Part shown: one piece after another, positions 95 through 21,927 of the stretch
Layout: every line of letters begins with the position of its first letter
How positions within the stretch are numbered: position 1 is the first letter of the stretch
Assembly: GCA_002841335.1 (NCBI GenBank)
Contig: PHEY01000006.1
Span: 1 to 32,999 of the forward strand
DNA length: 32,999 nucleotides
DNA from: Actinobacteria bacterium HGW-Actinobacteria-2
GTDB taxonomy: Bacteria; Actinomycetota; Actinomycetes; Propionibacteriales; Propionibacteriaceae
Direction: 5' to 3'
Made by a program: the position numbers and the translations under genes
Notes under the pieces: model-generated
The model's database searches: none
Seen by the model: only the letters and a program-made list of their open reading frames with translations
What the model was told of the DNA's origin: nothing

Positions 95-100
95 ACTAGG
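95..100. repeat. Presumed IS481 target site (ACTAGG)
   Basis: ACTAGG directly follows the ACA terminus of the insertion sequence and matches the NCTAGN target preference of IS481. It contains the stop codon (TAG on the minus strand, 98-96) of the neighbouring 3-hydroxyacyl-CoA dehydrogenase gene. The partner copy expected at the left end of the element lies outside the window. Confidence 0.6.
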
Positions 101-935
101 CGGTGTAGGTGAAGAAGCCACGCCCGCTCTTGCGTCCCAGCCAGCCGGCGCGGACGTACTTGCGCAGCAGCGGATGGGCGCGGTACTTCGAGTCGCCGGT
201 CTCAGCCAGCAGCACCTCCATGATGGCCAGCACGACGTCCAGACCGATCAGATCGCCCAGGGCCAGCGGCCCCATCGGGTGGTTGGCGCCGAGCTTCATC
301 GCCGTGTCGATGTCTTCGGCCGATGCCGTGCCTGCGGCCAGCACCTCGACAGCTTCGTTGATCATCGGCACCAGGATGCGGTTCACCACGAACCCGGCTG
401 CCTCCTGCACCTCGACGGGGGTCTTGCCGAGAGTCTCGGCGAGCTCCTTGGTGCGAGTGACCAACTCCGGCGGAGTGTCGGCGCCGGCGATCACTTCGAC
501 CAGCTTCATCACCGGCGCGGGGTTGAAGAAGTGCATGCCGATCACCGGGTGGTTCAGGCCGCGTCCCAACTCGGTCACCGACAGCGAGGACGTGTTGGAC
601 GCCAGGATGGTCTGCGGTCCGCAGAGCTGATCGAGCTGCTCGAAGATCGGGCGCTTGGCGTCCATGTTCTCGTAGATGGCCTCGACAACGAGCTCGCAGT
701 CGCCCAGCTCACCGACCGTGGCGGTGCTCAGCCGGGCAAGAATCGCCTCGGCGCCGGCCTGATCCAGCCTGCCCTTGGCAACCTGACGATCGAGGCCGGC
801 GGCGATCTTCGCCCGCCCGCCGGCCGCCAACTCAGCCGTGGCGTCGGCCAGCAGGACGGTGAAGCCGTCGGTCCGGGCGAACACCTCGGCGATGCCGGCG
901 CCCATGGTTCCGGCGCCGATGACTCCTACCAACAT
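96..935 (-). CDS. 3-hydroxybutyryl-CoA dehydrogenase (PaaH/Hbd/FadB2 type)
   Basis: NAD(P)-dependent oxidation of a (3S)-3-hydroxyacyl-CoA to the 3-ketoacyl-CoA, the third step of beta-oxidation, in the cytoplasm. The 279-residue product has the N-terminal Rossmann motif GAGTMGAG (residues 7-14), the SNTSSLSVTEL segment (about 113-123) and the HFFNPAPVMKLVEV signature with catalytic His135, followed by the C-terminal dimerisation domain. Length is normal for the single-domain enzyme. The ATG at 935-933 is chosen because it opens the Rossmann fold directly and is preceded by a GAGAGGAA ribosome site; longer in-frame readings have an implausible N-terminus. It is the last gene of the leftward operon, and its stop codon lies inside the IS481 target site, so the reading frame is intact. 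Confidence 0.93.
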   Translation of the reverse strand: MLVGVIGAGTMGAGIAEVFARTDGFTVLLADATAELAAGGRAKIAAGLDRQVAKGRLDQAGAEAILARLSTATVGELGDCELVVEAIYENMDAKRPIFEQLDQLCGPQTILASNTSSLSVTELGRGLNHPVIGMHFFNPAPVMKLVEVIAGADTPPELVTRTKELAETLGKTPVEVQEAAGFVVNRILVPMINEAVEVLAAGTASAEDIDTAMKLGANHPMGPLALGDLIGLDVVLAIMEVLLAETGDSKYRAHPLLRKYVRAGWLGRKSGRGFFTYTA

Positions 936-960
936 CTCAGTTCCTCTCGTTGCTGTCTGA

Positions 961-1734
961 CTACTTGTTCTGGAAGGGGGCCGGACGGCGCTTCTCGACG
1001 AAGGCACCCATGCCTTCGCGCTGATCGGCCGACTCGAAGCACGAAGCGAAGGCGTCCACCTCGATCGCGATCGCGGCGTCCAGATCGACGGAGGCGCCCT
1101 CGGCCAGTGCTCGTTTGGTGGCTCGCACTGCGATCGGCGCCTGCCGGGCGATCTCGCCGGCCAGCCCCAGGGCAGCGTCGAGGAGAGCGTCGGGCTCGTG
1201 CACCTCGTTGACCAGCCCGATGGCGAGCGCTCGGGCCGCGTCGACCTTGCGTCCGGTGTACAGCATCTCCTTGGCCAGGCCGGAGCCGACGAGTCGCGCC
1301 AGCCGCTGAGTGCCGCCGAACCCGGCGGTGATGCCCAGCCCGACCTCGGGTTGAGCAAAGATCGCCTTGGTGGAGGCCACCCGAATGTCGCAGGCGAGGG
1401 CCAGCTCGCAGCCACCACCGAGGGCAAAGCCGTTGACCGCGGCGATCGAGGGGATCGGCAGCAGTTCGAGCTTGCGGAAGGTCCCATTGCCAAGCTCGCT
1501 GAACGCCGTGGCCTCGGCCTGCGTCATCGTCGACATCGCAGCCACGTCCGCACCGGCGACAAAGGCCCGGCCCGCCCCGGTGATCACCAGGCAGCGGGCC
1601 TGATCGGCCACGGCCTGGTCGAAGGCCTCGGCGAGCTGGCCGAGTACCTCGGCGTTGAGTGCGTTGAGCGCGTCCTCGCGCGTGATGGTGACCACGGCCA
1701 CCTGATCGGCGAACTCGTAACGAATGTCATCCAT
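961..1734 (-). CDS. Enoyl-CoA hydratase (crotonase family)
   Basis: Adds water to a trans-2-enoyl-CoA to give (3S)-3-hydroxyacyl-CoA. The 257-residue protein has the crotonase oxyanion-hole segment AFVAGADVAAM (about 57-67) and the second one NGFALGGGCELALACD (101-116). Both catalytic glutamates are present, Glu110 and Glu130, the latter in PEVGLGITAGFGGTQRL. This pair marks a true hydratase rather than an isomerase or hydrolase of the fold. The start at 1734 follows an AAGGAGAAG ribosome site. It sits 25 bases upstream of the 3-hydroxyacyl-CoA dehydrogenase and about 35 bases downstream of fixX in one transcription unit. Substrate chain length cannot be read from the sequence; the company of a short-chain dehydrogenase suggests crotonyl-CoA-like substrates. 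Confidence 0.92.
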   Translation of the reverse strand: MDDIRYEFADQVAVVTITREDALNALNAEVLGQLAEAFDQAVADQARCLVITGAGRAFVAGADVAAMSTMTQAEATAFSELGNGTFRKLELLPIPSIAAVNGFALGGGCELALACDIRVASTKAIFAQPEVGLGITAGFGGTQRLARLVGSGLAKEMLYTGRKVDAARALAIGLVNEVHEPDALLDAALGLAGEIARQAPIAVRATKRALAEGASVDLDAAIAIEVDAFASCFESADQREGMGAFVEKRRPAPFQNK

Positions 1735-1768
1735 GCTCTTCTCCTTGCTCGATCGGTTGGGGAACGGC

Positions 1769-2056
1769 TCAGCCTTCGCGGTATTGGACGCCGAAGCCAC
1801 CACGGGGGTAGCGCCAGCGCAGAGCTCCAGGGGAGGACACGGCCAGGCAGGTGCCGCACTCCAGGCAGGCAGCGTATTCGACGGCCACTTCGCCGTCCGG
1901 ACGCCGGGAGTACACCCCGGCCGGGCAGCAGGCGATGATCCGCTCGGCTGTGCCGGTGCTGCGAGCCAACTCCTGGTCGATCTCGATGTGCGACTCCTCT
2001 TCGTCGAGGACGAAGCGGTTGCCGGCCAGGCGGGCCTCGATGGGGGGAAGTTTCAC
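1769..2056 (-). CDS. fixX: FixX ferredoxin-like protein
   Basis: Small iron-sulfur partner of FixC that relays electrons between the flavoprotein and quinone or ferredoxin. The 95-residue product has ACCPAGVY (Cys43, Cys44) and CLECGTC (Cys64, Cys67, Cys70), the cysteine layout of FixX and of the cluster domain of ETF:quinone oxidoreductase, enough for one [4Fe-4S] cluster. The start is GTG at 2056; its GTGA overlaps the fixC stop by four bases, so translation is probably coupled. Length matches the family (about 90-100 residues). It completes a fixABCX set in the usual order. Confidence 0.93.
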   Translation of the reverse strand: MKLPPIEARLAGNRFVLDEEESHIEIDQELARSTGTAERIIACCPAGVYSRRPDGEVAVEYAACLECGTCLAVSSPGALRWRYPRGGFGVQYREG

Positions 2057-3348
2057 AATGCCCTCGCTCCCTGCCAGGCGTCCTTCACGATGGTGCCGAC
2101 GCCGATGCCGCTGCCCTTCAGGGCGTCCATGGCCACCCGACGCAGCGGCTTGCGGGCGCTGCCGTCCAGACCGAACACCTGGTGCAGGGCATCGGCCAGG
2201 AGTGGACCGTAGCTTTCGTACATTCGCGGGTTCTCCAAGAACTTCGGGGCGCGCGCGTAGGTCTGCAGGTCCTGACCGACGAAGCCGGCGGCCAGCGCCT
2301 TCGGATACCCGGCCAGCCCGGCAGCGGTCACATCACCGGTCTCGATCGCCTCGGCCACCCCGACGGCGGCCGCGATCGCCGCCCCGGCGGCCAAGTCCAT
2401 GCCGCGCACGGTCAGACCGGTGTTGATGGTCATTCCAGCGGCGTCCCCGACGATCACCAGACCGTGGTGAACCAGCTCGCCGACCATGGCCTGACCACCC
2501 TCGGCGACGAGGTGGCAGCCGTACTCGAGCAGTTCGCCGCCGCGCAGCAGACGCTCGGTGTAGGGATGGTCGAGGAAGCCGTCGAACACCTCGGTGCTGC
2601 GCAGGCCTTTCGCGGTCAGATCGTCGAGCCGCAGCACCACACCCACCGAGATCGAGCCCTGGTTGGTGTAGATGAAGCCACCCCCACCGACGCCACGGGT
2701 GCAGTCTCCGACCACGGCGATCGCGGCGCCCTCGAGGGCATCCACCCCGAACCGGGCCTCGATGATGTCAGACGGCAACTGCACCACAGCTTTGACGCCG
2801 ACCGCGAGCTGATGCGGCTGCGGGGCCGGGCGCAGGCCCGCGTCGCGGGCGAGGAAGGAGTTCACCCCGTCGGCGGCCACGGTGACCCGCGCCCGCAGCT
2901 CGTCCTCACCGGCGACGACACCGACGACGCGACCGTCTTCGATGAGCAGAGAGTCCACCCGGACGCCGGGCATGACCAGCACGCCGGCGTCTTCGCAGCG
3001 TTCGGCCAGCCAGGGGTCGAGCCGTCCGCGCAGCACGCTCACCGCGGTGCCGTCGCGATCCAGCCGGGCGTCGCGGTAGTCGATCGCTACCGAGCTGTCC
3101 TGGTTGAGGAAGCAGATCTGGTTGCGGGAGATTCGCCGCTCGATCGGGGCTGTCTGGAGGAAGTCGGGAAAGACCTGCTGCAACGGATGGGTGTACAACA
3201 CTCCGCCGGAGAGGTTCTTCGCACCCGGGGTCTCTCCGCGATCGATCAGTGCCACGGACAGTCCGCGTCCGGCGAGTTGATAAGCGGTGATGCAGCCGGC
3301 CACGCCGGCACCCACCACGATCACATCGAAATCAGGCTCCGCGCTCAT
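2053..3348 (-). CDS. fixC: FixC, ETF-quinone oxidoreductase-like flavoprotein
   Basis: FAD protein that accepts electrons from the FixAB electron-transfer flavoprotein and passes them with FixX to the membrane quinone pool. The 431-residue protein starts with an FAD-binding Rossmann motif, VIVVGAGVAGCITAYQLAGRG (split as residues about 9-29), followed by the GAKNLSGGVLY segment typical of FixC/ETF-QO. A second FAD contact, LVIVGDAAGMTINTGL, lies near residue 300. It overlaps fixB by ATGA and fixX by GTGA, so the three are tightly coupled. Dedicated fixABCX sets occur in nitrogen fixers, where they bifurcate electrons, and beside carnitine or acyl-CoA genes; here the neighbours are acyl-CoA oxidation enzymes. 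Confidence 0.93.
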   Translation of the reverse strand: MSAEPDFDVIVVGAGVAGCITAYQLAGRGLSVALIDRGETPGAKNLSGGVLYTHPLQQVFPDFLQTAPIERRISRNQICFLNQDSSVAIDYRDARLDRDGTAVSVLRGRLDPWLAERCEDAGVLVMPGVRVDSLLIEDGRVVGVVAGEDELRARVTVAADGVNSFLARDAGLRPAPQPHQLAVGVKAVVQLPSDIIEARFGVDALEGAAIAVVGDCTRGVGGGGFIYTNQGSISVGVVLRLDDLTAKGLRSTEVFDGFLDHPYTERLLRGGELLEYGCHLVAEGGQAMVGELVHHGLVIVGDAAGMTINTGLTVRGMDLAAGAAIAAAVGVAEAIETGDVTAAGLAGYPKALAAGFVGQDLQTYARAPKFLENPRMYESYGPLLADALHQVFGLDGSARKPLRRVAMDALKGSGIGVGTIVKDAWQGARAL

Positions 3349-4250
3349 GGCTGCTCCAAGGCGGCAGTGATGGCTGGCACCAACTCGTACAGGTCACCGA
3401 CCAACGCGTAGTCGGCCTCGGCCAGCACGGGTGCTTTCGGATCGGAGTTGATCGCCACGATGGTCTCGGCCGAACGCACTCCAGCCAGGTGCTGCAACTG
3501 CCCCGATACCCCCACCGCGACATACAGGCGAGGAGCGATGTGTTGTCCCGAGACTCCCAGATAGCGATCCCGCGGCAGCCAATCCAGCCCTTCGGCGAGC
3601 GGACGCGTGCAGGCAAGCTCGGCCTCCAATGCTGCAGCCAGCGCCTCAATGATCGACAGGTCCTCGCGGGCGCGCAGGCCGCGTCCGGCGCCGACCACTC
3701 GGGGTGCGGCAGCAAGGTCGACCTCGGTCACCGCTGTGACCTGCACCGCTGTGACCTGCATCGGCAACGTCGCCGCAGGCGTCTCTTCGATCGGTGCTGC
3801 GCCCTGGACCGGCGCGACTCCACCGCCGTCCACCATCAGCGCGACCGGTCCGCTGAACTCCCGGGTGGTCACGGCGATACCGCCGTTCACTCCGTGGGTG
3901 ACCATGACGGTGCCGGCTTGGGAGGTGACCTCTTTGACGTCGATCAGGGCCGGAGCGCGAAGCGCCGCAGCCGCCGCGCCGAGCAGCACACGTTCGGCCG
4001 GACGTCGCCCGCCGAGGACCACCTGCGGCCGTGCGGCCGTGGCGGCTTGGGCTACGGCAGGGGCGAACGCTTCCAGTGGACGATCGCCGGGTTCTCCGAA
4101 CCAGATCACCTTGTCGACGCCACTGGTGGCGATCCGTTCGGCGACCGCACGGCTGCCGACCACCACGGCGAGCGTCTCGCCGTCCAGCTGGGCTGCGGTG
4201 GTCACCAGGTTGGCGACACTGGCCGTGCCGGCCACGATGATGAGATTCAT
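3345..4250 (-). CDS. fixB: FixB, electron-transfer flavoprotein alpha subunit
   Basis: Alpha subunit of an ETF that shuttles electrons from acyl-CoA dehydrogenase to FixCX. The 301-residue protein has an N-terminal alpha/beta domain and the diagnostic C-terminal FAD domain: RYLGVSGQHIAPRLYVAVG, then GVSGQLQHLAG and VAINSDPKAPVLAEADYAL, the conserved ETF-alpha signature. It overlaps fixA by four bases at its start and fixC by four at its stop. Length is slightly short but typical of FixB. Whether this ETF bifurcates electrons cannot be settled from the visible motifs; the test is alignment to bifurcating and canonical ETF groups. Confidence 0.93.
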   Translation of the reverse strand: MNLIIVAGTASVANLVTTAAQLDGETLAVVVGSRAVAERIATSGVDKVIWFGEPGDRPLEAFAPAVAQAATAARPQVVLGGRRPAERVLLGAAAAALRAPALIDVKEVTSQAGTVMVTHGVNGGIAVTTREFSGPVALMVDGGGVAPVQGAAPIEETPAATLPMQVTAVQVTAVTEVDLAAAPRVVGAGRGLRAREDLSIIEALAAALEAELACTRPLAEGLDWLPRDRYLGVSGQHIAPRLYVAVGVSGQLQHLAGVRSAETIVAINSDPKAPVLAEADYALVGDLYELVPAITAALEQP

Positions 4251-5023
4251 TGCTGTCCTCCGATCAGGACGCCGTCCGCGCGAAGAGCGCTGACCAGTTC
4301 GGCCGCGGCCGCAGCCGGATCATCGGTCGAGATCTGAATGCCTCGTCGAGCCGGTCCGGACAGTCGTGCCGTCGAGCGCAGCGTGCCGTCGGCAACCACC
4401 GGATCGGCGGGAAGCTGTTGGACGGGCTTCTTCGCGGCCGCCAGCACGTCCTTCATGCCGGGGGCTTTGACCGTGGCGGCATCGGTGGCCACGGCCAAGA
4501 CGGCCGGACCGTCGATCCGCAGCTGCTCGGTGCCGCCGCTGACCGCGCGTTCGACGACCAGGGCACCAGGCTCGATGGCGACGGCGGTGACCTCCGTGAG
4601 CACTGGCCACCCGAGCAGTCCGCCCACCACCGCGGGGACGAGCTTCGCGCCAACATCGACCGAGGAATCCCCGGTGATCAGGACGGCGATGTCGTCCACG
4701 CCGGCCAGAGCCGTGGCCAGCGCTTGTGCGGTGCCGGTGGAGCCTGCGGCCGTGAGCGCCGGATCGGCGACGACCATCAGTGCATCCAGGCCGCGGGAGA
4801 GGGCGGCTTTGGTGGCCAGGCCGGTGGCGACTTCCGGGCCACCGACGGTGAGCCCGACGACGTCGGCGCCATGGGTGTCGCCGAGGTGACGGGCCACGGT
4901 GATGGCGACGGCGTCGTAGTCACTGACCGCTGACTTGGCTCTGCTGAAGTCCACCTGGCCGTCGGCAGCGACGGTGGCTTCTTGGGGATCGGCGGCCCAT
5001 TTGTAGGCCACGACGATTTTCAT
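4247..5023 (-). CDS. fixA: FixA, electron-transfer flavoprotein beta subunit
   Basis: Beta subunit of the ETF, binding AMP or a second FAD. The 258-residue protein opens MKIVVAYKWAADP and contains the SDYDAVAITVARHLGD segment and an ETF-beta core with GLDALMVVADP and PAVVGGLLGWPVLTEV. The ATG at 5023 is preceded by an AGAAGGGA ribosome site. It lies 13 bases downstream of the acyl-CoA dehydrogenase, the natural electron donor, and overlaps fixB by four bases. The N-terminus lacks the long K(Q)VPD-type run seen in some canonical ETF-beta proteins, which agrees with a FixA-group assignment, but that is a weak argument. Confidence 0.92.
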   Translation of the reverse strand: MKIVVAYKWAADPQEATVAADGQVDFSRAKSAVSDYDAVAITVARHLGDTHGADVVGLTVGGPEVATGLATKAALSRGLDALMVVADPALTAAGSTGTAQALATALAGVDDIAVLITGDSSVDVGAKLVPAVVGGLLGWPVLTEVTAVAIEPGALVVERAVSGGTEQLRIDGPAVLAVATDAATVKAPGMKDVLAAAKKPVQQLPADPVVADGTLRSTARLSGPARRGIQISTDDPAAAAAELVSALRADGVLIGGQQ

Positions 5024-5036
5024 CTCGCATCCCTTC

Positions 5037-6176
<1,140 letters not shown>

Positions 6177-6255
6177 GATCTTCCCTTCTCGGCGGCGCCG
6201 ACTGCGCTGCCGGATGTGGCGGTGTGGAGGAGTCGTGCGGTGGGGGGCAGCGGGG

Positions 6256-6672
6256 TCAGGCTGTTGGTGGCTTGGGCGGGAGCAGGACGGCTTCACCGGT
6301 GACCACGACGGTGCCGTCCTGTTTGGTGGCCGTGCATTCGAAGCGAACCCGCCCCTTTTCCAGCTTCTCGGCCACGGTGACGGTGGCGCAGATCGTGTCT
6401 CCCAGCAGCACTGGAGCCAGGAAGTTGAGGGATTGGGACAGGTAGATGGCTCCCGGGCCAGGCAGTTGGGTGCCGAACACGGTTGAGAAGAGGCTGCCGG
6501 AGAGCATTCCGTGGGCAATGCGCTGGCCGAACCGGGTCTGTTCGGCGTAACGCTGATTCACGTGCGCGGGGTTGAAGTCACCGATGATGCCGGCGAAGCC
6601 GTAGACATCGGACTCGGAGATGGTCTTCTCGAAAGACGCGCTGTCGCCGGGGTTCAGTTCGTCGTAGTACAT
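6256..6672 (-). CDS. MaoC-family (R)-enoyl-CoA hydratase, PhaJ-like
   Basis: Hot-dog-fold hydratase that usually makes (3R)-3-hydroxyacyl-CoA from enoyl-CoA. In the 138-residue product the hydratase-2 motif is clear: GDFNPAHVN with Asp32 and His37, then [12 protein letters not shown] with His54. It is the first gene of the leftward operon. The start at 6672 is chosen for the AAGGGAG ribosome site eight bases upstream; a further upstream in-frame ATG would fall in the promoter/operator region. It is interesting that the operon also holds a crotonase of opposite expected stereochemistry. It may supply a second hydratase activity, salvage the wrong epimer, or act on a later or branched intermediate. 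Confidence 0.88.
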
Positions 6673-6697
6673 GGCGGGCTCCCTTGCCTCATTCAAC

Positions 6698-6713
6698 ATG
6701 ACAACCTTGTCAT
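6698..6713. promoter_or_regulatory. Operator palindrome at the leftward promoter
   Basis: ATGACAA-CC-TTGTCAT is a perfect inverted repeat with 7-base arms and a two-base centre. It covers the expected transcription start of the leftward operon, the usual place for a repressor. Its 14-base core TGACAACCTTGTCA shares 10 of 14 positions with TGACACGCGCGTCA at 6983-6996 in the opposite promoter. The TetR protein encoded at 16569 is the obvious candidate to bind it (inference). Confidence 0.65.
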
Positions 6714-6718
6714 ATCGA

Positions 6719-7002: not shown

Positions 7003-7028
7003 CATGCCACCCCGACGGAGCATCATCA

Positions 7029-7119: not shown

Positions 7120-7992
7120 GTGGAGATACTCCAACCGCTGTTACGCAGCATGGAGACCGGAAGTGTCTATGCGCTCGCCGCGCTGGGCATCATCATCGTG
7201 TGGCGGACCAGCCTGGTCATGCACTTCGCCCAAGGCGCGATGGGCATGTTCAGCGGCACGGCAGTGGCCTTCGTTCTCAATCGCACGGGCGCGCCGCTGT
7301 GGGTGGCCGTCCTCGCCGGCGCGGTGGTCGCGATCCTGCTCGGTTTCGCGGTGGACTTCGCGGTCATCCGCCAACTGAAGCGCGCCACCGCCGTCGGCAA
7401 AGAGATTGTCACCCTCGGCCTGATCATGGTGTTCATGGGCTTGGCGCCCATCGTGTTCGGCACCGACCCGATGCTGCTGCCCAAAGCGATCCCCACCGGT
7501 GAGGTCGAAGTGGCCGGGGCCAACATCTCCTACAACGCGATCCTGAACATCACCGTCGGCATCGCCATCGCGGCTGGTCTGTTCGTCGTGCTGCAGAAGA
7601 CCAAGCTGGGATTGGCCATCCGCGCCACGGCCTCCAACGAACAGACCGCACGTCTGATGGGGATCCCCACCAAGACGGTCACCCTGGTCGCCTGGGCAGT
7701 GGCCGGTGTGCTCGGCATGCTCGCGGCGGTGATGATCGCGCCCACCACCACGGTGACGCCGACCTTCATGAACACCGTCCAGGTCTCAGCCTTGTTCGCC
7801 TGCGTGCTGGGCGGCTTCCAGACCTTCTACGGCCCGGTCATCGGCGCCTACCTGATCGCGGTGGCCAGCAACTTCCTCAAGCTGTACGGAAGCTCGGTCT
7901 GGGGCGACCAGATCCTCTACCTGCTGATCCTCGTCTTCCTGCTCGTCCGACCCAACGGGTTGGTCGGCAAGACCTACCTGCAGAAGGTGTGA
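7120..7992 (+). CDS. Branched-chain-type ABC transporter permease (LivH-like)
   Basis: Integral membrane permease of a Liv-type importer for amino acids, amides, urea or short organic acids. The 290-residue protein has about eight hydrophobic segments and the LivH-type features GSVYALAALGIIIVWRTS near the N-terminus, RATASNEQTARLMGI (the EAA-like ATPase contact loop, about residues 168-182) and GGFQTFYGPVIGAYL. Translation starts at GTG 7120 because the frame upstream has no membrane character and GAAGGAGAG sits six bases ahead. It is the first gene of the rightward operon. The co-transcribed genes are CoA enzymes, so the cargo is more likely a carboxylic acid than an amino acid (inference). 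Confidence 0.92.
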   Translation: MEILQPLLRSMETGSVYALAALGIIIVWRTSLVMHFAQGAMGMFSGTAVAFVLNRTGAPLWVAVLAGAVVAILLGFAVDFAVIRQLKRATAVGKEIVTLGLIMVFMGLAPIVFGTDPMLLPKAIPTGEVEVAGANISYNAILNITVGIAIAAGLFVVLQKTKLGLAIRATASNEQTARLMGIPTKTVTLVAWAVAGVLGMLAAVMIAPTTTVTPTFMNTVQVSALFACVLGGFQTFYGPVIGAYLIAVASNFLKLYGSSVWGDQILYLLILVFLLVRPNGLVGKTYLQKV

Positions 7993-7997
7993 GGCTG

Positions 7998-9077
7998 ATG
8001 TCTGAAACGCTGAAGCCGCAAACGCGTCGCTGGCTCGGCAACGCGCACCTGCAGTACCTCCTCTTCGGTGCGGTGCTGTGCCTGCTCCCGTTGCTGTCCA
8101 GCTCGGGCGTCCTCAAGGCCAGCACCTTGTCGACCCTGGCGTTCGTCCTGATCTACGCCATCGCCGCCATGGGTCTCAACCTGTTGCTGGGCTACTCCGG
8201 CCTCATCTCCTTGGGCACCGCCGGCTTCATGGGTCTGGGTGCCTACCTGGCCGCCTACGTCCAAGACGACCTCGGCCTCGGCTTCTGGGTGGCGCTGCTG
8301 GCGGCCCTGGTGGTCCCCACCTTCATCGGCATCTTGGTCGGGGTGGTGTCCCTGCGAGTGCGCAGCATCTACCTGGCCATCGCCACCTTGTGCATCTCGG
8401 AGATCCTGCTGAAGACCTTCGAACAGGCCGAGTGGTTCACCCGCGGCACCGCCGGCAAACAGTCCAGCTACCCGGTGATCTTCGGTGTGCACACCGATCG
8501 GCAGGCGATGTTCGTGGTGATCGTGATCGCCTTGATCGCGGTGATGATGCTCACTCACAACGTCGTCCACGGCCAGCTCGGACGGGCGCTGCACGCGATG
8601 CGCTCCAGCGAGGTCGCCGCCCAGGCGATGGGGGTGAACATCTTGAAGTACAAGCTGTTCGCCTTCGCTTTGGCCACCTTGTACGCCGGGCTCGCCGGGG
8701 CGCTCTACCTGTTCTTCCTGAAGAGTTCCTACCCCTCGACCTGGAACCTGTTCCTGTCATTGAACGTGATCGCCATGGTCGTCGTCGGCGGGCTCCGCTC
8801 GATCTTCGGCACCGTGGCCGGAGCGTTCGTCATCATCGCGGTGCCGGAGCTGGTGCTGAAGGAGCTGCCGGTGATCGGCGACATTCCTGGCCTGCCCTAC
8901 ATCTTCAGCGGTGTGCTGATCGTGCTGGTGATCATGTTCTTCCCCCAAGGCCTGCAAGGTCTGTGGCAACTGGTGCGCGACGCGATCTCGTCGCGGCGAC
9001 ATCCGTCCGGCCCGGGCACCCCGCGGGCCACGGCCGAGGTCGAACCGCCGCTGGGCACCGAGGCGGTGACCCGGTGA
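7998..9077 (+). CDS. Branched-chain-type ABC transporter permease (LivM-like)
   Basis: Second membrane subunit of the Liv-type importer. The 359-residue protein has an N-terminal hydrophobic helix, then the LivM motif YAIAAMGLNLLLGYSGLISLGTAGFMGLGAY (in pieces, about residues 50-80), the loop RALHAMRSSEVAAQAMGVN, and a C-terminal membrane end followed by a charged tail of about 35 residues. ATG 7998 is chosen; a GTG at 7989 overlapping the livH-like stop is an equally in-frame alternative that adds three residues and would match the 4-base overlaps elsewhere in the locus. The downstream livG-like gene overlaps by GTGA. Confidence 0.9.
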   Translation: MSETLKPQTRRWLGNAHLQYLLFGAVLCLLPLLSSSGVLKASTLSTLAFVLIYAIAAMGLNLLLGYSGLISLGTAGFMGLGAYLAAYVQDDLGLGFWVALLAALVVPTFIGILVGVVSLRVRSIYLAIATLCISEILLKTFEQAEWFTRGTAGKQSSYPVIFGVHTDRQAMFVVIVIALIAVMMLTHNVVHGQLGRALHAMRSSEVAAQAMGVNILKYKLFAFALATLYAGLAGALYLFFLKSSYPSTWNLFLSLNVIAMVVVGGLRSIFGTVAGAFVIIAVPELVLKELPVIGDIPGLPYIFSGVLIVLVIMFFPQGLQGLWQLVRDAISSRRHPSGPGTPRATAEVEPPLGTEAVTR

Positions 9078-9901: not shown

Positions 9902-10616
9902 CACTGCACTGGAGATCCGCAACCTCAAGATTCGCTACGGCGCCATCGAAGCGGTCAAGGGCATCGACCTGGACGTCCCCGAAGGCAAGGTCGTCGCGCT
10001 GCTCGGCGCCAATGGCGCCGGCAAGACCTCGACGCTGCGCTCGATCTCCGGCCTGACCCCGGCCGCCGAGGGCAGCATCACCTTCTTCGGTCAGGACATC
10101 ACCAAGCTGGAGGCGGAGAAGATCACCCGACTCGGCATCGTCCAGTCGCCCGAAGGACGTCAGGTGTTTCGTGACCTGACGGTTGAAGAGAACCTCCGCA
10201 CCGGTGCATTCACCGTCCGCAGCCGCGCGCAGGTCAAGGCCAACTTCGAACGCTGCTACCGCTACTTTCCGCGACTCGAAGAACGCCGCACCCAGCTGGC
10301 CTACACCCTCTCGGGCGGCGAGCTGCAGATGTTGGCCATCGCCCGCGCGCTGATGGCCAATCCGAAATTGCTGCTCTTGGACGAACCATCCCTCGGCTTG
10401 GCGCCGATGGTGGTCAAGGACATCTTCGCCATCATCGGCGAGATCAAGGCAGAAGGCACCACCGTGCTCATCGTCGAGCAGAACGCCCTGCAAACCCTGA
10501 AGATCGCCGACTACGGCTACGTGCTGGCCACCGGACGCAACCACCTTCACGGACCCGCAGCCGAGCTGATCAAGGACAACACGTTGGTCGAGGCCTATCT
10601 AGGCACAACGAAGTAA
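9894..10616 (+). CDS. ABC transporter ATP-binding protein (LivF-like)
   Basis: Second ATPase of the importer. The 240-residue protein shows Walker A GANGAGKTS (38-46), VQSPEGRQVFRDLTVEENL, which is highly typical of LivF, the signature LSGGELQMLAIARAL, Walker B LLLLDEPSLGLAP and switch His region replaced by VLIVEQNA as in LivF proteins. The ATG at 9894 overlaps the livG-like gene by eight bases. With the two permeases, the LivG homologue and the following binding protein it makes a full five-gene importer. Confidence 0.94.
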   Translation: MTDTALEIRNLKIRYGAIEAVKGIDLDVPEGKVVALLGANGAGKTSTLRSISGLTPAAEGSITFFGQDITKLEAEKITRLGIVQSPEGRQVFRDLTVEENLRTGAFTVRSRAQVKANFERCYRYFPRLEERRTQLAYTLSGGELQMLAIARALMANPKLLLLDEPSLGLAPMVVKDIFAIIGEIKAEGTTVLIVEQNALQTLKIADYGYVLATGRNHLHGPAAELIKDNTLVEAYLGTTK

Positions 10617-10647
10617 CCATCTCCATCCACCAATAGAAGGAAACATC

Positions 10648-11889: not shown

Positions 11890-11895
11890 AATGAC

Positions 11896-11961
11896 CGCCG
11901 TCGGCCCCCTTCGCTGACGGCGTGACGGGGTGGGGGTCCCGCCCATTCGACCCCCACCCCG
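11896..11961 (+). other. Tandem GC-rich hairpins after the binding-protein gene
   Basis: Two inverted repeats follow the stop codon: CGCCGTC/GACGGCG (11896-11902 with 11916-11922) and a perfect 13-base stem at 11926-11938 with 11949-11961 (CGGGGTGGGGGTC and its complement). Neither is followed by a T-tract. They probably protect the 3' end of the transporter mRNA or partly end transcription, separating high expression of the binding protein from the enzymes downstream. Confidence 0.6.
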
Positions 11962-12001
11962 CCCCTCACAGTCCCCACCAGCATCAACACCAAGGCAAAC
12001 A

Positions 12002-13036
12002 ATGAGCACCCACGGCAACATCGGGATTCTGGGCTACGGCCTCTATCTCCCCGAGCACCGGATGACCGCCAAGGACATCTCCGAGGCGACCGGTGGCACC
12101 TGGTCGGAACAGGCAGTGATCGACAAGCTCGGGATCATCTCCAAGCCCGTTCCCGGACCGGGCGACGGCACCCAAGAGATGGGTGCCCTGGCAGCCCTGG
12201 ACGCTTTGGAGCGCACCGGTCTGGACCCCGCCGAGATCGACGTCATCTTGTGCGTCGGAGAGGAGTGGAAGGAGTACGGGCTGACCACCTCGGCGCTGTA
12301 CATCCAAGACCGGATCGGTGCCACCAACGCCTGGGGGATCGACATCGCCAACCGCTGCTGCACCACGCTGACCGGTCTGAAGATGGCCAAGGACATGCTT
12401 CTGGCCGACGATGACATCGACACCATCCTGGTGGCCGGCGGCTACCGCAACGGTGACTTCGTCGACTACACCGATGCGACGGTGTCGATGATGTTCAACC
12501 TGGGTGCCGGCGGCGGGGCGTTCATCGTCCGCAAGGGCATGGATTCCAACTTGATCCTGGGCACCCACATCATCGCCGACGGCTCCTTGGTGCACACCGC
12601 CGGGGTGCAGATCGGCGGCATCAACGAGCCCTTCACGCCCGACAACGTCGATGAGGGCTATCGCTCCTTGCGACTGATGGACGCGGTGCGGATGAAGGAC
12701 ACCCTGAATCAACACAGCCTGCCCAACTGGTACACCTGCATCGACGAGAGCCTGCGCAAGAGCGGCGGGCTCGACCGTACCGACATCGACTACCTCGGGA
12801 TTCTGCACTTCAAGCGCAGCCAGCACCTGGCGATGGTGGCCGAACTCGGACTCACCGAAGACCAGACCACCTATCTGGAGGACTACGGCCATATCGGCCA
12901 GGTCGACCAGATGCTCACCCTCCACCTCGGCCTGCAGGCCGGGAAGATCACCGACGGCTCGTTGGTCACCCTCATCGCGGCCGGCATCGGCTACGTGTGG
13001 GCCTCGACCTGTATCCGTTGGGGAAAGGCCAACTGA
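12002..13036 (+). CDS. FabH/HMG-CoA synthase-like condensing enzyme (KAS III family)
   Basis: A thiolase-fold enzyme that forms or breaks a C-C bond next to a thioester. The 344-residue protein aligns by motif with beta-ketoacyl synthase III: the nucleophile is in GIDIANRCCTTLTG (Cys119 by alignment to the D-V-A-A-A-C motif, Cys120 adjacent), and the catalytic His is in YLGILHFKRSQHL (His269). Where FabH has Asn in GNTSAAS, this protein has YGHIGQVDQ, placing His297 at the third catalytic position. It therefore is probably not an ordinary fatty-acid initiator. The setting, with CoA-transferase, hydrolase and thiolase downstream, points to a CoA-level step in catabolism: condensation with acetyl-CoA or cleavage of a beta-keto compound (inference). 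The ATG at 12002 follows AAGG; longer readings upstream run through the hairpins. Confidence 0.82.
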   Translation: MSTHGNIGILGYGLYLPEHRMTAKDISEATGGTWSEQAVIDKLGIISKPVPGPGDGTQEMGALAALDALERTGLDPAEIDVILCVGEEWKEYGLTTSALYIQDRIGATNAWGIDIANRCCTTLTGLKMAKDMLLADDDIDTILVAGGYRNGDFVDYTDATVSMMFNLGAGGGAFIVRKGMDSNLILGTHIIADGSLVHTAGVQIGGINEPFTPDNVDEGYRSLRLMDAVRMKDTLNQHSLPNWYTCIDESLRKSGGLDRTDIDYLGILHFKRSQHLAMVAELGLTEDQTTYLEDYGHIGQVDQMLTLHLGLQAGKITDGSLVTLIAAGIGYVWASTCIRWGKAN

Positions 13037-13037
13037 C

Positions 13038-14384
13038 ATGTTCGACTACCGCTCAAAGCTGATCAGCGTCGATCAGGCTTTGGAGCTCATCAACGACGGC
13101 GACAACATCACCGTCGGTCTGGGCGCCAATGAGCCCCCGGCGTTCCTGGGCAATCTGCACCAGATCGCCGACCGGGTGAATGACGTGACGATCACCAACT
13201 GCCTGCCGACCGTGCCGGGGGAGTACCTGTCGGTGGAGAACGTGACCAAGGCGTTCTGGATCGACAGCTGGTTCTCCACGCCGCAGTTGCGCACCCTGTC
13301 GGCCACCGGACGGGTCAGCTACATCCCCAACCACCTGCACTTGGCCGGAACCAAGCGGAACTTCCACTCCCGGGCCAACATCATGATCTCGCTGGCGTCC
13401 ATGCCGGGGGCGGGCGGTCGTACCCGCTTCGCCTGCGGCAACACCTATGAGGAGAAGATCGGCAGCCAGGCCGACCTGCGGATCCTGGAGATCAGCCCGA
13501 ACGCGCCGTACTCGTTCGGTCAGAACTACCTCGACTGGGACCAGATCGACTACGTCATCGAGTCCGACGGGCTCCCCGGGACGATCCCGGCGGCCAAACC
13601 CAACGAGAAGGACCTCGCCATCGGACGGGCCATCGCCGACCTGGTCGAGGACGGCGACTGCGTCCAGGTAGGGATCGGTGGCATTCCCAACGCCGTGTGC
13701 AGCTACCTGGCCGAGAAGCGCGACCTGGGTATCCACACCGAGATGATGACCACCGGAATCATGGAGCTGATGCGGGCCGGGGTGGTCACCGGAGCCCGCA
13801 AACAGGTCGACGTCGGCAAGACGGTGTTCGCCTTCGCCCTGGGCAGCCAGGAGATGTACCAGTTCATCGACAACAACCCCGACTGCTTCACCGGCCGCGG
13901 TGAAGAGGTCAACAACCCGTGGATGATCGCCCGCAACGACAACCAGGTGAGCATCAACACCACCGTCGAGGTGGACCTGACCGGTCAGTGCTGCTCTGAG
14001 AGCATCGGCACGTTCCAGATCTCCGGCACCGGAGGTCAGTCCGATACCGCCACTGGTGCGCAGCGCTCGAAGAACGGCCGCTCGATCATCGCGCTCTACA
14101 GCACGCTGGAGAAGGTCAACAAGGAGACCGGTCAGACCGAGACGATCTCCAAGATCGTGCCGACCCTGCGTCCGGGAGCTGCGGTGTCGTTGTCGCGCAA
14201 TGACGTCGACTGGGTGGTCACCGAGTACGGCGCGGTGAGCCTGCGCGGCACGAACATCCGCGAACGGGTGGAGCGGTTGATCTCGATTGCGCACCCGTCC
14301 ATGCGCGACCACTTGTACGCCGAGGCCGTGAAGTGCGGCTTCATCTCGGTGGCACCGTCGGTGTCGCGGGTCGCGGGAGCCTGA
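13038..14384 (+). CDS. Acetyl-CoA hydrolase/transferase-family CoA-transferase
   Basis: Moves CoA between acids, for example from acetyl-CoA to the imported acid, so activation costs no ATP ligase. The 448-residue protein is colinear with 4-hydroxybutyrate/succinate:acetate CoA-transferases. Visible motifs are VGIGGIPNAV (about 211-220), INTTVEVDLTGQCCSESIG with the likely catalytic Glu311, the oxyanion loop ISGTGGQSD (329-336) and TEYGAVSLRGTNIRER near the C-terminus. The gene starts one base after the condensing-enzyme stop and is followed four bases later by the hydrolase gene. No acyl-CoA synthetase is encoded anywhere in the locus, so this is the only visible activation enzyme. Acid specificity is unknown. 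Confidence 0.92.
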   Translation: MFDYRSKLISVDQALELINDGDNITVGLGANEPPAFLGNLHQIADRVNDVTITNCLPTVPGEYLSVENVTKAFWIDSWFSTPQLRTLSATGRVSYIPNHLHLAGTKRNFHSRANIMISLASMPGAGGRTRFACGNTYEEKIGSQADLRILEISPNAPYSFGQNYLDWDQIDYVIESDGLPGTIPAAKPNEKDLAIGRAIADLVEDGDCVQVGIGGIPNAVCSYLAEKRDLGIHTEMMTTGIMELMRAGVVTGARKQVDVGKTVFAFALGSQEMYQFIDNNPDCFTGRGEEVNNPWMIARNDNQVSINTTVEVDLTGQCCSESIGTFQISGTGGQSDTATGAQRSKNGRSIIALYSTLEKVNKETGQTETISKIVPTLRPGAAVSLSRNDVDWVVTEYGAVSLRGTNIRERVERLISIAHPSMRDHLYAEAVKCGFISVAPSVSRVAGA

Positions 14385-14388
14385 TCAC

Positions 14389-15207
14389 ATGGCCACCTTC
14401 GACTTCGACGGCATCGGCCTCAACTACGAAGACCACGGCAGTGGGACGCCGCTGCTGATCCTGAATGGGATCTTCATGTCGTGCGCATCGTGGGCCGGCT
14501 TCGTCGACACCTTCAGCGAGCGCAACCGACTGCTACTGCTGGACCTGGTCGATCAAGGTGCCAGCGACAAGGTCGAGTTCGAGTACACCCAGGAGCTGCA
14601 GGAACGAGCAGTGCTGGCGTTCCTCGACCATCTCGGACTTGCCAAGGTCAGCATCTGCGGGGTGAGCTACGGCGGCGAGGTCGCCATGCGGTTCGCGGCC
14701 CGCCACCCCGATCGGGTCGAGAAGCTGATCCTGGCCAACACCACCGCCTACACCTCGTGCTGGTTGCGGGACATCGGCCACTCGTGGGAGCGGGCGATGG
14801 GCACCCACGATGGCCACGTCTTCTTCGCCACCTGCATTCCGATCGTGTACTCCCCGACGTTCTACGAGACCAACTACTCCTGGCTCTCGGCGCGCGAGGA
14901 CATGTTCGTCGAACACTTCACCCCAGCGGTCTATGACGCCTTCGCCCGCCTGACCCGCAGCGCTGAGAACCATGACGAGCGAAAGAACCTGCCTCGGATC
15001 ACCGCGCCGACGCTGGTCATCTCGGCCGAGCTCGACTACGTCACACCGCTGCCCAACCAGCGGGAACTCGTTGCCGGGATCCCCGGCGCCGCCCACGTGG
15101 TGATCCAAGACGCCGGGCACGCCGCGATGTACGAGAAGCCCAGCGAGTTCGCCTCCCTGGTGCTTGGTTTCGTCAACACCGACGCCGCAGCCATCGCCAT
15201 CTCCTAA
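14389..15207 (+). CDS. Alpha/beta hydrolase
   Basis: Predicted serine hydrolase acting on an ester, thioester or C-C bond; substrate unknown. The 272-residue protein has the oxyanion segment LLILNGIFMS in place of the usual HG motif, the nucleophile elbow ICGVSYGGEVAM (Ser93), the acid in VISAELDYVTP (Asp216) and the base in QDAGHAAMYEKP (His244). The absence of the common HGxP oxyanion motif is unusual. The gene starts four bases after the CoA-transferase stop, between it and the thiolase, so its reaction most likely belongs to the same pathway: hydrolysis of a CoA thioester, a lactone or a beta-diketone are all possible. Confidence 0.85.
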   Translation: MATFDFDGIGLNYEDHGSGTPLLILNGIFMSCASWAGFVDTFSERNRLLLLDLVDQGASDKVEFEYTQELQERAVLAFLDHLGLAKVSICGVSYGGEVAMRFAARHPDRVEKLILANTTAYTSCWLRDIGHSWERAMGTHDGHVFFATCIPIVYSPTFYETNYSWLSAREDMFVEHFTPAVYDAFARLTRSAENHDERKNLPRITAPTLVISAELDYVTPLPNQRELVAGIPGAAHVVIQDAGHAAMYEKPSEFASLVLGFVNTDAAAIAIS

Positions 15208-15230
15208 GCCGACCTACAGAGGAACCCGAA

Positions 15231-16409
15231 ATGACCGACATCTATATCGTCTCCGCTTGCCGCACGGCCGTTGGCAGCTTCGGCGGCAGTTTGAAGGACG
15301 TGCCCGCCGCCGCGCTCGGCGCCGCCGTGATCAAGGCCGCAATGGAGCGGGCGAACGTCGCCGCCGACCAGGTCGATGAGGTCTACTTCGGCTGCGTGTT
15401 GGCCGCCGGCGCCGGCCAGAACGTCGCTCGTCAGGCTGCGATCGGTGCCGGGATCGGCGTGGAGACGCCCGCCACAACGGTCAACATGTTGTGCGGCTCA
15501 GGCATGAAGACCGTTGTCGAGGCTGCCCGAACGATCTTGGCCGGCGATGCCCAGGTTGTCGTGGCCGGCGGCACCGAGAACATGTCGGCCGCGCCGTACC
15601 TGGTGCCGTCCCAACGCTGGGGGGCTCGGATGGGGGAGGCGACCATGGTCGACTCGATGCTCTACGACGGACTGACCGATGTGTTCAGCAACCAGTCGAT
15701 GGGCATCACGGCAGAGAACGTCGCCGATCAGTGGGGCATCACCCGCGACCAGATGGACGCGCTGGCGTTGGCGTCCCAGACCAAGGCTGCGGCGGCGGTG
15801 GCTGCCGGCCGCTTCGCCGACGAGATCGTTCCGGTCACGGTGAAGGTGAAGCGCGAGGAGAAGGTCTTCGACACCGATGAGTACCCCCGCGCCACCACCG
15901 CCGAGGCGCTGGCGAAGCTGCGTCCCGCCTTCAAGACCGATGGGCGAGTGACCGCGGGCAACGCGTCGGGGATCAACGACGGCGCTGCTGCCATCGTGGT
16001 GGCCAGCGGCGAGGCCGTGGCTGCGCTCGGGCTGAAGCCGCTGGCCAAGCTGGTCGGGTGGGGCCAGGCCGGGGTCGATCCGTCGATCATGGGGGTGGGC
16101 CCGATCGAGGCCACCCGACGAGCGCTCGCCAAGGCTGAACTGAGCGTCGACCAGCTGGATCTGATCGAGGCCAACGAGGCCTTCGCGGCCCAGGCCCAGG
16201 CCGTGGGCAACGACCTGGGGTGGGATTGGTCGAAGGTGAACGTCAACGGCGGCGCGATCGCGCTGGGGCACCCGATCGGCGCCTCGGGGGCGCGAATCAT
16301 CGTCACTTTGCTCAACGAGCTGGCTCGACGACCGCAGGACCGCTACGGGCTGGCTACCTTGTGCATCGGCGGAGGCATGGGCATCGCGACCGTGTTCGAA
16401 GCATGCTGA
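15231..16409 (+). CDS. Acetyl-CoA C-acetyltransferase (thiolase)
   Basis: Cleaves 3-ketoacyl-CoA with CoA to acetyl-CoA plus a shortened acyl-CoA, or the reverse condensation. The 392-residue protein has all thiolase signatures: NMLCGSGMK with nucleophile Cys88, the GGTENMS segment, NVNGGAIALGHPIGASGAR with catalytic His (about residue 349), and the C-terminal CIGGGMG with the second Cys (about 379). Length and motifs are those of biosynthetic-type/degradative thiolases such as AtoB. It is preceded by AGAGGA and ends the rightward operon. It supplies the final step for the dehydrogenase and hydratase encoded on the opposite arm. Confidence 0.94.
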   Translation: MTDIYIVSACRTAVGSFGGSLKDVPAAALGAAVIKAAMERANVAADQVDEVYFGCVLAAGAGQNVARQAAIGAGIGVETPATTVNMLCGSGMKTVVEAARTILAGDAQVVVAGGTENMSAAPYLVPSQRWGARMGEATMVDSMLYDGLTDVFSNQSMGITAENVADQWGITRDQMDALALASQTKAAAAVAAGRFADEIVPVTVKVKREEKVFDTDEYPRATTAEALAKLRPAFKTDGRVTAGNASGINDGAAAIVVASGEAVAALGLKPLAKLVGWGQAGVDPSIMGVGPIEATRRALAKAELSVDQLDLIEANEAFAAQAQAVGNDLGWDWSKVNVNGGAIALGHPIGASGARIIVTLLNELARRPQDRYGLATLCIGGGMGIATVFEAC

Positions 16410-21913: not shown

Positions 21914-21927
21914 TTCCCATAGGCATC

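What the first reader, a model, noticed from the sequence alone, without database searches (positions are those of the whole stretch)
96..16409. Divergent locus for ligase-free, import-coupled oxidation of an unknown organic acid
Two divergent operons together encode a five-part Liv-type importer, a CoA-transferase as the only visible CoA-activating enzyme, acyl-CoA dehydrogenase, two hydratases, 3-hydroxyacyl-CoA dehydrogenase, thiolase, FixABCX, a FabH/HMGS-like enzyme and an alpha/beta hydrolase. Each family is recognisable, but this combination is not one I can match to a described pathway. The condensing enzyme and hydrolase suggest an additional C-C or ester step beyond ordinary beta-oxidation.
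Basis: partly seen in the sequence, partly recalled or inferred. Interest (0 to 1): 0.75.

Follow-up and report, generated by a model that had tools for sequence, protein, structure and literature searches.

The report
Import-coupled polyester (PHB) fragment catabolism cassette
This stretch of DNA carries a gene set, shared by many unrelated bacteria, that most likely imports and digests fragments of the natural bioplastic polyhydroxybutyrate, and it includes one enzyme whose role there is still unknown.

Summary
In detail: window 96-16409 holds the genes listed, and the unit extends to 18285 (TetR 16569-17177; a second alpha/beta hydrolase, ABH2, 17236-18285). The condensing enzyme (KAS, family NF005308) marks a cassette (Liv importer, CoA-transferase, hydrolases, thiolase, C4-acyl-CoA enzymes) found in Actinomycetota, Bacillota, Mycoplasmatota, Spirochaetota and Synergistota, with distant versions in haloarchaea.

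Relatives point to a substrate. 29 of 38 tested ABH2-like proteins from KAS loci match the intracellular short-chain PHA depolymerase model. In 299 Bacillota genomes 16 of 18 carriers of that depolymerase also carry KAS, 13 within 8 kb; 26 of 30 KAS carriers show no PHA synthase. Secreted PhaZ7-like esterases sit in three KAS loci. Best reading: uptake of exogenous (R)-3-hydroxybutyrate oligomers, hydrolysis, CoA-transfer, epimerisation through crotonyl-CoA, then thiolysis or dismutation to butyrate.

KAS has the FabH fold but not the FabH triad: Cys-His-His instead of Cys-His-Asn in 79 of 79 sequences. Its reaction is unknown; I propose CoA-dependent ester cleavage (inference). The window's own ABH2 is a divergent subtype that fails the depolymerase cut-off, so the substrate is inferred from relatives. 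New variant of a known kind.

The parts
96..935 (-). 3-hydroxybutyryl-CoA dehydrogenase (HBD)
   Evidence: PF02737/PF00725; best NCBIfam PRK05808 379.7 bits, cut-off 408
961..1734 (-). crotonase, expected (S)-specific short-chain enoyl-CoA hydratase (ECH)
   Evidence: PF00378 216 bits; PRK05809 324 bits, cut-off 394
1769..2056 (-). FixX ferredoxin-like protein
   Evidence: PF05187 Fer4_ETF_QO 26.1 bits, cut-off 24
2053..3348 (-). FixC flavoprotein
   Evidence: PRK10015 418 bits (cut-off 466) and PRK10157 FixC 360 bits (cut-off 610)
3345..4250 (-). FixB / EtfA
   Evidence: PF00766, PF01012
4247..5023 (-). FixA / EtfB
   Evidence: PF01012
5037..6176 (-). short-chain acyl-CoA dehydrogenase (ACAD)
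   Evidence: PF00441/PF02770/PF02771; best NCBIfam AcrC 490 bits, cut-off 640
6256..6672 (-). MaoC-type enoyl-CoA hydratase, expected (R)-specific; the second hydratase
   Evidence: PF01575 74.8 bits; DFNPAH (DxNPxH) motif in translation
6698..6713 (.). ATGACAACCTTGTCAT, likely TetR operator in the divergent promoter
   Evidence: one exact match, 0.04 expected with up to 2 mismatches; TGACA-N4-TGTCA upstream of KAS/MaoC/LivH in 20 of 23 loci
7120..7992 (+). LivH-type permease
   Evidence: PF02653; GTG start with GGAG upstream
7998..9077 (+). LivM-type permease
   Evidence: PF02653
9074..9901 (+). LivG-type ATPase
   Evidence: PF00005, PF12399
9894..10616 (+). LivF-type ATPase
   Evidence: PF00005
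10648..11889 (+). Liv-type substrate-binding protein (lipobox-like N-terminus by eye)
   Evidence: PF13458
12002..13036 (+). KAS: FabH-fold enzyme of family NF005308 with Cys118, His268, His296 (numbering from base 12005)
   Evidence: 441.8 bits, cut-off 315; residues in 79 of 79 sequences; AF2 pLDDT 85.6 and FabH-type PDB matches
13038..14384 (+). acetyl-CoA hydrolase/transferase family CoA-transferase
   Evidence: PF13336; TIGR03948 269 bits, cut-off 674.8; PDB 4-hydroxybutyrate CoA-transferases
14389..15207 (+). alpha/beta hydrolase 1 (ABH)
   Evidence: PF00561; PDB 4q3l MGS-M2 226.7 bits
15231..16409 (+). thiolase (THL)
   Evidence: PF00108/PF02803; TIGR01930 over cut-off
16569..17177 (+).
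   Evidence: PF00440 40.1 bits, cut-off 24; tblastn match in 15 of 80 loci
   Evidence: NF050089 i-nPHAscl 99.8 bits, below cut-off 300; fold match to B. thuringiensis PhaZ among other hydrolases

Best explanation
The two divergent operons form a TetR-controlled cassette for scavenging exogenous short-chain polyhydroxyalkanoate breakdown products, most likely (R)-3-hydroxybutyrate (3HB) oligomers. Proposed order: the Liv-type ABC system imports 3HB or short 3HB oligomers made outside the cell, in some relatives perhaps by a secreted PhaZ7-like esterase (inferred). The hydrolases ABH2 and ABH open ester bonds (inferred by homology). The CoA-transferase activates 3HB at the cost of acetyl-CoA or butyryl-CoA (inferred by family). 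MaoC dehydrates (R)-3HB-CoA to crotonyl-CoA; crotonase and HBD turn this into (S)-3HB-CoA and acetoacetyl-CoA; thiolase yields two acetyl-CoA (standard chemistry of these families). ACAD with FixABCX either reduces part of the crotonyl-CoA to butyryl-CoA, giving an acetate/butyrate dismutation, or re-oxidises butyryl-CoA with quinone. KAS works with the CoA-transferase; my preferred guess is that its Cys takes an acyl group from an ester and hands it to CoA (thiolytic cleavage), giving 3HB-CoA without ATP. Shown: gene content, conservation, residue signature, operator-like palindrome, co-occurrence. Inferred: substrate, direction, TetR binding, KAS reaction.
For: Conserved cassette: of 35 loci with full flanks, LivH 33, LivM 33, LivG 32, LivF 32, binding protein 33, CoA-transferase 34, ABH 33, ABH2 27, thiolase 28. 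ABH2-like proteins of KAS loci: 29 of 38 match i-nPHAscl (NF050089) at E<=1e-85; L068 341.8 and L164 375.3 bits exceed the cut-off 300. Genome association in 299 Bacillota: depolymerase over cut-off in 18, KAS at 1e-60 in 30, both in 16 (Fisher 1.6e-16; 1.4e-15 without the centre genome), 13 of 16 within 8 kb. 26 of 30 KAS carriers and all 12 handles, own genome included, show no PHA synthase (model TIGR01836, E<=1e-10), so the depolymerase hardly serves own granules. PhaZ7-like proteins with signal-like N-termini lie in KAS loci of 3 genomes; the other 6 carriers of that family among the 299 all have a PHA synthase, in 2 of them next to it and to MaoC (L197, L198). Tenericute-type operons add SDR, MaoC, ACAD and EtfAB, the families needed for 3HB dismutation. 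The (R)-hydratase/(S)-hydratase/beta-oxidation route for PHB is documented (PMC4823750, passages), as is 3HB fermentation to acetate plus butyrate (PMC10096456, passages).
Against: The window's own ABH2 is a divergent subtype: 97.9-99.8 bits against a cut-off of 300, matching only about 110 residues; none of the 10 KAS-bearing Actinomycetota tested passes. No PhaZ7-like gene was found in L028-L107; the own genome was not searched for it. KAS association of the PhaZ7-like family alone is weak (3 of 9, p = 0.05). The C4 enzymes fit any C4 acid (butyrate, crotonate). 14 of 30 KAS carriers in Bacillota lack the depolymerase over cut-off. The KAS reaction is not needed in a textbook 3HB pathway, so the scheme leaves it as an unproven addition. 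Association counts are not corrected for phylogeny. ABH2 folds like many alpha/beta hydrolases, PhaZ being only one of the top group. Of 20 further KAS regions, 3 have neither Liv nor an activating enzyme nearby.
Confidence: 0.58

Rival explanations
1. Ordinary import and beta-oxidation of butyrate or another short-chain fatty acid: the CoA-transferase activates it, ACAD with FixABCX oxidises it, crotonase, HBD and thiolase finish; KAS and the hydrolases are accessory.
For: All C4 enzymes present; best models are butyryl/3-hydroxybutyryl-specific by name; FixABCX can pass electrons to quinone (recalled).
Against: Does not explain two hydrolases plus MaoC, nor the depolymerase association. ACAD was detected in only 7 of 35 full-flank loci, whereas KAS, CoA-transferase and ABH are nearly constant.
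Confidence: 0.15
2. Import of another ester, lactone or diketone (ABH resembles 3-oxoadipate enol-lactonase), opened by the hydrolases, activated by the CoA-transferase and cleaved by KAS and thiolase in a PcaD-PcaIJ-PcaF-like order.
For: ABH and the haloarchaeal, Chloroflexota and one Bacillota hydrolase (L165) score best against PcaD-type models, below cut-off; the Chloroflexota plasmid locus has a thiolase-domain protein and a Zn-ribbon protein.
Against: PcaD-type scores are generic for this superfamily; 29 of 38 ABH2-like partners match PHA depolymerase; PhaZ7-like esterases in three loci.
Confidence: 0.15
3. KAS is a retro-Claisen enzyme (thiolase or HMG-CoA-synthase-like) that cleaves acetoacetyl-CoA or a branched 3-hydroxy-3-methyl acyl-CoA, so the pathway contains a C-C step.
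For: KAS Glu86 aligns with a Glu of the HMG-CoA synthase of Acholeplasma granularum (L114, 437 bits, over cut-off) and Cys118/His268 align too; the minimal operon L193 has KAS but no thiolase match within the 20 kb read.
Against: A thiolase is in 28 of 35 full-flank loci, making a second one redundant; Glu86 is Ser in the haloarchaeal KAS; HMG-CoA synthase models score far below cut-off.
Confidence: 0.25

Closest known systems
Intracellular short-chain-length PHA depolymerase (PhaZ of Bacillus, NF050089; PDB 8ynv)
   Same: 29 of 38 ABH2-like proteins of KAS loci match the model; same ester chemistry expected; window ABH2 shares the invariant Ser110, Asp268, His330 columns of the alignment
   Different: 26 of 30 Bacillota carriers of KAS show no PHA synthase, and the gene sits with an importer and KAS; the window's ABH2 fails the cut-off
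PHB mobilisation through (R)-hydratase, (S)-hydratase and beta-oxidation (Haloferax mediterranei PhaJ1; Ralstonia eutropha), PMC4823750 (passages)
   Same: MaoC (R) + crotonase (S) + HBD + thiolase as in the window
   Different: There the polymer is an internal granule; the passages name no importer and no KAS
3HB or crotonate fermentation to acetate and butyrate (Ilyobacter), PMC10096456 (passages), PMC3035301 (search listing only)
   Same: Enzyme families in the tenericute-type operons fit the same stoichiometry
   Different: No gene cassette with KAS and Liv importer in what I read
CaiA-FixABCX of carnitine metabolism (recalled)
   Same: Acyl-CoA dehydrogenase paired with FixABCX, which may run as enoyl-CoA reductase
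   Different: ACAD scores 209 bits against the crotonobetainyl-CoA dehydrogenase cut-off 540; no other cai gene among the families found
FabH, PqsD, BioZ, OleA (KAS III fold)
   Same: Fold (top 50: TM 0.68-0.82 by query length, 16-24% identity), catalytic Cys
   Different: His instead of Asn at position 296 in 79 of 79; Glu86-Glu87, Arg117-Cys118-Cys119, His268/Lys270/Ser272/His274 and Gln299/Asp301/Gln302 invariant; catabolic operon

Membership tests
NF005308 (PRK06840, '3-oxoacyl-ACP synthase') | score over curated cut-off 315 bits | tested here: met
   441.8 bits
FabH / KAS III | KAS III fold | tested here: met
   the 50 best Foldseek hits are FabH, BioZ, PqsD, PqsBC, OleA or related starter synthases
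FabH / KAS III | Cys-His-Asn triad | tested here: not met
   Cys118, His268, His296 in 79 of 79; FabH-like genes of five KAS genomes have Asn at that column; His268 is one column off the FabH His in that alignment
FabH / KAS III | FabH model cut-off | tested here: not met
   TIGR00747 94.6 of 292.1; PRK09352 104 of 249
HMG-CoA synthase | catalytic Glu-Cys-His | tested here: inconclusive
   Glu86 aligns with the MvaS Glu but is Ser in haloarchaeal KAS; one-residue ambiguity
HMG-CoA synthase | model cut-off | tested here: not met
   TIGR00748 51.8 of 353; PRK04262 63.9 of 244
i-nPHAscl PHA depolymerase (NF050089), window ABH2 | score over cut-off 300 | tested here: not met
   99.8 and 97.9 bits, about 110 residues
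i-nPHAscl PHA depolymerase (NF050089), ABH2-like proteins of other KAS loci | score near or over cut-off | tested here: met
   29 of 38 (window included, 37 of the 41 locus rows used) at E<=1e-85, slightly laxer than 300 bits; L068 and L164 over 300 bits
extracellular PHB depolymerase PhaZ7 (NF050060) | cut-off 450 bits | tested here: not met
   L193 41.4 bits, L165 protein no match at 1e-8; L165 aligns with PhaZ7 structures at E 5e-4 to 2e-3, better with B. subtilis lipase A
butyryl-CoA:acetate CoA-transferase (TIGR03948) | cut-off 674.8 bits | tested here: not met
   269.4 bits, full length: superfamily member, specificity open
MaoC-type (R)-enoyl-CoA hydratase | MaoC fold and Asp/His motif DxNPxH (motif recalled; dyad Asp31/His36 stated in PMC4823750) | tested here: met
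   PF01575 over cut-off; DFNPAH in translation
Liv (HAAT) ABC importer | two permeases, two ATPases, binding protein | tested here: met
3HB-oligomer catabolism | binding, hydrolysis and growth on 3HB oligomers | not testable with these tools
   needs biochemistry

The most novel reading that the evidence does not exclude
KAS founds a new enzyme class: a KAS III-fold, Cys-His-His acyltransferase that cleaves 3-hydroxybutyrate oligomers (or another imported ester) with CoA instead of water, so that the ester bond energy is kept as a thioester and no ATP is spent. It would be the marker of a cross-phylum guild that feeds on other microbes' polyhydroxybutyrate, including wall-less Acholeplasma relatives and treponemes.
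Probability: 0.25. Interest if true: 0.85.

Novelty: new variant of a known kind. Interest (0 to 1): 0.64.

Why it matters
PHB is a widespread storage polyester and a commercial bioplastic. My searches for its anaerobic breakdown (listings, one paper in passages) gave no gene-level account of how fragments are taken up and fermented. If the reading holds, one recognisable gene, now labelled '3-oxoacyl-ACP synthase', flags PHB scavenging across at least five bacterial phyla and perhaps haloarchaea, predicts a substrate for a Liv-type importer, and adds an enzyme with an unassigned reaction that can be tested directly.

Tried and rejected
Rejected readings: FabH of fatty acid synthesis (triad and model cut-offs not met; FabH-like genes with Asn lie elsewhere in five KAS genomes); HMG-CoA synthase (cut-offs far off); a phloroglucinol, resorcinol, carnitine or lysine pathway (considered from memory only). 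Neighbourhoods of six weaker KAS-model hits in Actinomycetota (L108-L113; 22-26% or no tblastn match to KAS) show no Liv gene. Exceptions inside the search: of 20 further KAS regions (6 Actinomycetota, 14 Bacillota of the 30 carriers) 16 have at least one Liv gene and 16 a CoA-transferase or ligase; L173, L175 and L176 have neither, L161 no activating enzyme, L162 no Liv gene in 11 kb. G363 and G395 (about 210 bits) count among the 30 KAS carriers but are below the model's cut-off.

Led nowhere: paper search for the family name (0 papers); searches for oligomer uptake, anaerobic PHB breakdown and KAS plus PHB depolymerase (listings); passages of the Peloplasma aerotolerans paper hold 0 occurrences of 'butyr', 'branched-chain' or 'ABC'; PDB neighbours of the binding protein are generic; megablast in E. 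coli genomes gave no match.

Method flaws: one search took wrong reading frames for 5 to 6 of 79 KAS rows (seen as outliers) and dropped 4 of 92 by length; redone with tblastn frames (79 rows, one of them the window, two pairs identical). In some searches some greedy ORFs are on the wrong strand. P0002 carries about 90 residues upstream of the likely start, also in alignment A3. For A5 I used 37 of 41 locus rows (L029, L031, L032, L107 left out) plus the window. The gene counts were recounted with overlapping matches resolved (only LivF changed, 64 to 62 of 80).
Full report
WHAT IS THERE. The window is the first 33 kb of contig C4 of a 2.92 Mb, 98.6% complete genome. The closest KAS relatives by tree are a Propionicimonas and a Propionibacteriaceae bin. 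Two divergent operons meet in a promoter region of about 450 bp. The minus-strand operon reads MaoC hydratase, acyl-CoA dehydrogenase, FixA, FixB, FixC, FixX, crotonase, 3-hydroxybutyryl-CoA dehydrogenase; the plus-strand operon reads LivH, LivM, LivG, LivF, binding protein, KAS, CoA-transferase, hydrolase ABH, thiolase, TetR, hydrolase ABH2.

CONSERVATION. KAS belongs to NCBIfam NF005308 (441.8 bits, cut-off 315). It is patchy: over the cut-off in 4 of the 60 genomes (own genome included), 7 of 296 Actinomycetota (own included) and 28 of 299 Bacillota (30 at 1e-60). One scan of named genomes found 216 relatives, of which the best 80 were kept: Propionibacteriaceae, Actinotalea, Clostridia, Synergistaceae, treponemes, Acholeplasmataceae, an Anaerolineaceae bin and others. 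Of the 35 loci longer than 20.5 kb, all with KAS, LivH is in 33, LivM 33, LivG 32, LivF 32, binding protein 33, CoA-transferase 34, ABH 33, ABH2 27 and thiolase 28; LivH, KAS, CoA-transferase and ABH are together in 31. MaoC is in 13, ACAD and FixB/EtfA in 7, crotonase and HBD in 5. An SDR of the FabG/acetoacetyl-CoA reductase type, not seen in the window's locus, is in 63 of 83 loci (cluster 1). In the plasmid collection 11 records match at 27-36% identity; of the three inspected, two haloarchaeal ones pair KAS with a Liv importer, a hydrolase, an AMP-ligase and MaoC, and a Chloroflexota one with CoA-transferase, thiolase-domain and Zn-ribbon proteins, hydrolase and Liv genes. So importer, KAS, a CoA-activating enzyme and a hydrolase are the stable core, and the activating enzyme can be a transferase or a ligase.

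REGULATION. The palindrome ATGACAACCTTGTCAT lies at 6698-6713, 25 bp before the MaoC start. Its core TGACA-N4-TGTCA occurs 28 times in 23 loci (the 22 rows of the window's clade in the tree, plus L103, which I added because it had a hit), every time within 450 bp upstream of KAS, MaoC or LivH, in 20 of the 23; reversed sequences gave 0, and the 58 other loci gave 1 hit, not upstream. I set the 450-bp limit after seeing first hits. The palindrome is shared by Actinomycetota, Synergistota, Bacillota and the Anaerolineaceae bin, which suggests that regulator and cassette moved together. That the TetR protein binds it is inference.

SUBSTRATE. The first clue was ABH2, whose best model is the intracellular short-chain PHA depolymerase (99.8 bits, cut-off 300). 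In other KAS loci the corresponding hydrolase passes: L068 341.8, L164 375.3 bits, and 29 of 38 ABH2-like proteins match at 1e-85 or better. The window's ABH2 belongs to a longer subtype shared at 40-44% with L049 and L053. The second clue is esterases of the LipA/PhaZ7 type with signal-like N-termini (by eye) inside KAS loci L165, L170 and L193; they are far below the PhaZ7 cut-off. L193 is a minimal operon: PhaZ7-like esterase, CoA-transferase, KAS, sodium:solute symporter. In 299 Bacillota the esterase family is in 9 genomes: 3 KAS carriers, each time in the KAS locus, and 6 others, all of which carry a PHA synthase (KAS association alone p = 0.05; PHA synthase association p = 1e-6). The third is co-occurrence: in the same 299 genomes 18 carry the depolymerase over cut-off and 16 of these carry KAS (30 of 299 overall), p = 1.6e-16 without correction for kinship, 1.4e-15 without the centre genome, which was chosen for its KAS; 13 of the 16 have the two within 8 kb. 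The fourth is absence: 26 of 30 KAS carriers and all 12 handles, the own genome among them (G063 is in both lists), show no PHA synthase with model TIGR01836 at 1e-10, where Caulobacter as control does. An 'intracellular depolymerase' in bacteria without the synthase, next to an importer, is best explained by exogenous polymer.

PATHWAY. Literature read in passages supports the route: in Haloferax and Ralstonia (R)-3HB-CoA is dehydrated to crotonyl-CoA by an (R)-hydratase and linked to beta-oxidation, with an (S)-hydratase proposed for Ralstonia (PMC4823750); this is MaoC, crotonase, HBD and thiolase in the window. 3HB fermentation by Ilyobacter gives acetate and butyrate (PMC10096456). Operons such as L061 and L068 hold MaoC, ACAD, EtfB, EtfA, thiolase, SDR, KAS, Liv, CoA-transferase, ABH, ABH2 in a row, the families needed for that dismutation. 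In the window FixABCX replaces EtfAB; by analogy with carnitine metabolism (recalled) it could drive the acyl-CoA dehydrogenase in the reductive direction. Direction is inference.

KAS. The AF2 model (pLDDT 85.6) matches FabH, BioZ, PqsD and OleA at TM 0.68-0.82 and 16-24% identity in the best 50. In 79 of 79 sequences Glu86, Glu87, Lys89, Arg117, Cys118, Cys119, His268, Lys270, Ser272, His274, His296, Gln299, Asp301 and Gln302 are invariant; these are the best-matching relatives, so the invariance is for the close family. Two haloarchaeal relatives at 35-37% keep Cys118, His268 and His296; the Chloroflexota plasmid protein keeps only the Cys. Five FabH-like proteins from KAS genomes and an HMG-CoA synthase have Asn at column 296. 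The conserved basic residues near the cysteine would suit a substrate with a free carboxylate (inference). No paper in the library holds the term PRK06840, and searches for KAS with PHB depolymerase or oligomer uptake returned nothing on point (listings only). Thiolytic ester cleavage is my preferred reaction because L193 shows no match to the intracellular hydrolases in the 20 kb read and because KAS and CoA-transferase are the most constant enzymes; a retro-Claisen reaction is the main rival.

LIMITS. Substrate evidence comes from relatives; the window's own hydrolase fails the depolymerase cut-off, as do all 10 KAS-bearing Actinomycetota tested. Counts are uncorrected for phylogeny. 'Ligase-free' is true of the locus only: the genome has 7 AMP-binding matches elsewhere.

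Noticed in passing
window 18299-20414, minus strand: A 442-aa protein without any Pfam or NCBIfam match at the limits used (by eye like a mannose-6-phosphate isomerase) beside a DeoR regulator.
   Followed up: partly
window 20633-26315, plus strand: Sugar ABC transporter (binding protein, two permeases), class II aldolase, a kinase of the ADP-specific phosphofructokinase/glucokinase family and an RbsD/FucU protein: an apparently unrelated carbohydrate operon.
   Followed up: no
L193 8754-14211: Minimal operon of PhaZ7-like esterase, CoA-transferase, KAS and sodium:solute symporter in an unnamed Bacillota genome.
   Followed up: partly
L166 and L172: Two and three KAS-matching genes in one cluster, 27-61% identical to the window's, suggesting specificity variants.
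   Followed up: no
L024 11017-22711: Chloroflexota plasmid with SDR, KAS, CoA-transferase, thiolase-domain protein, Zn-ribbon OB-fold protein, hydrolase and Liv genes; its KAS has Gln and Tyr where the window has His268 and His296.
   Followed up: partly
L197 7566-10266: PhaZ7-like esterase next to MaoC and a class III-type PHA synthase (362 bits, cut-off 365) in a genome without KAS at 1e-60.
   Followed up: partly
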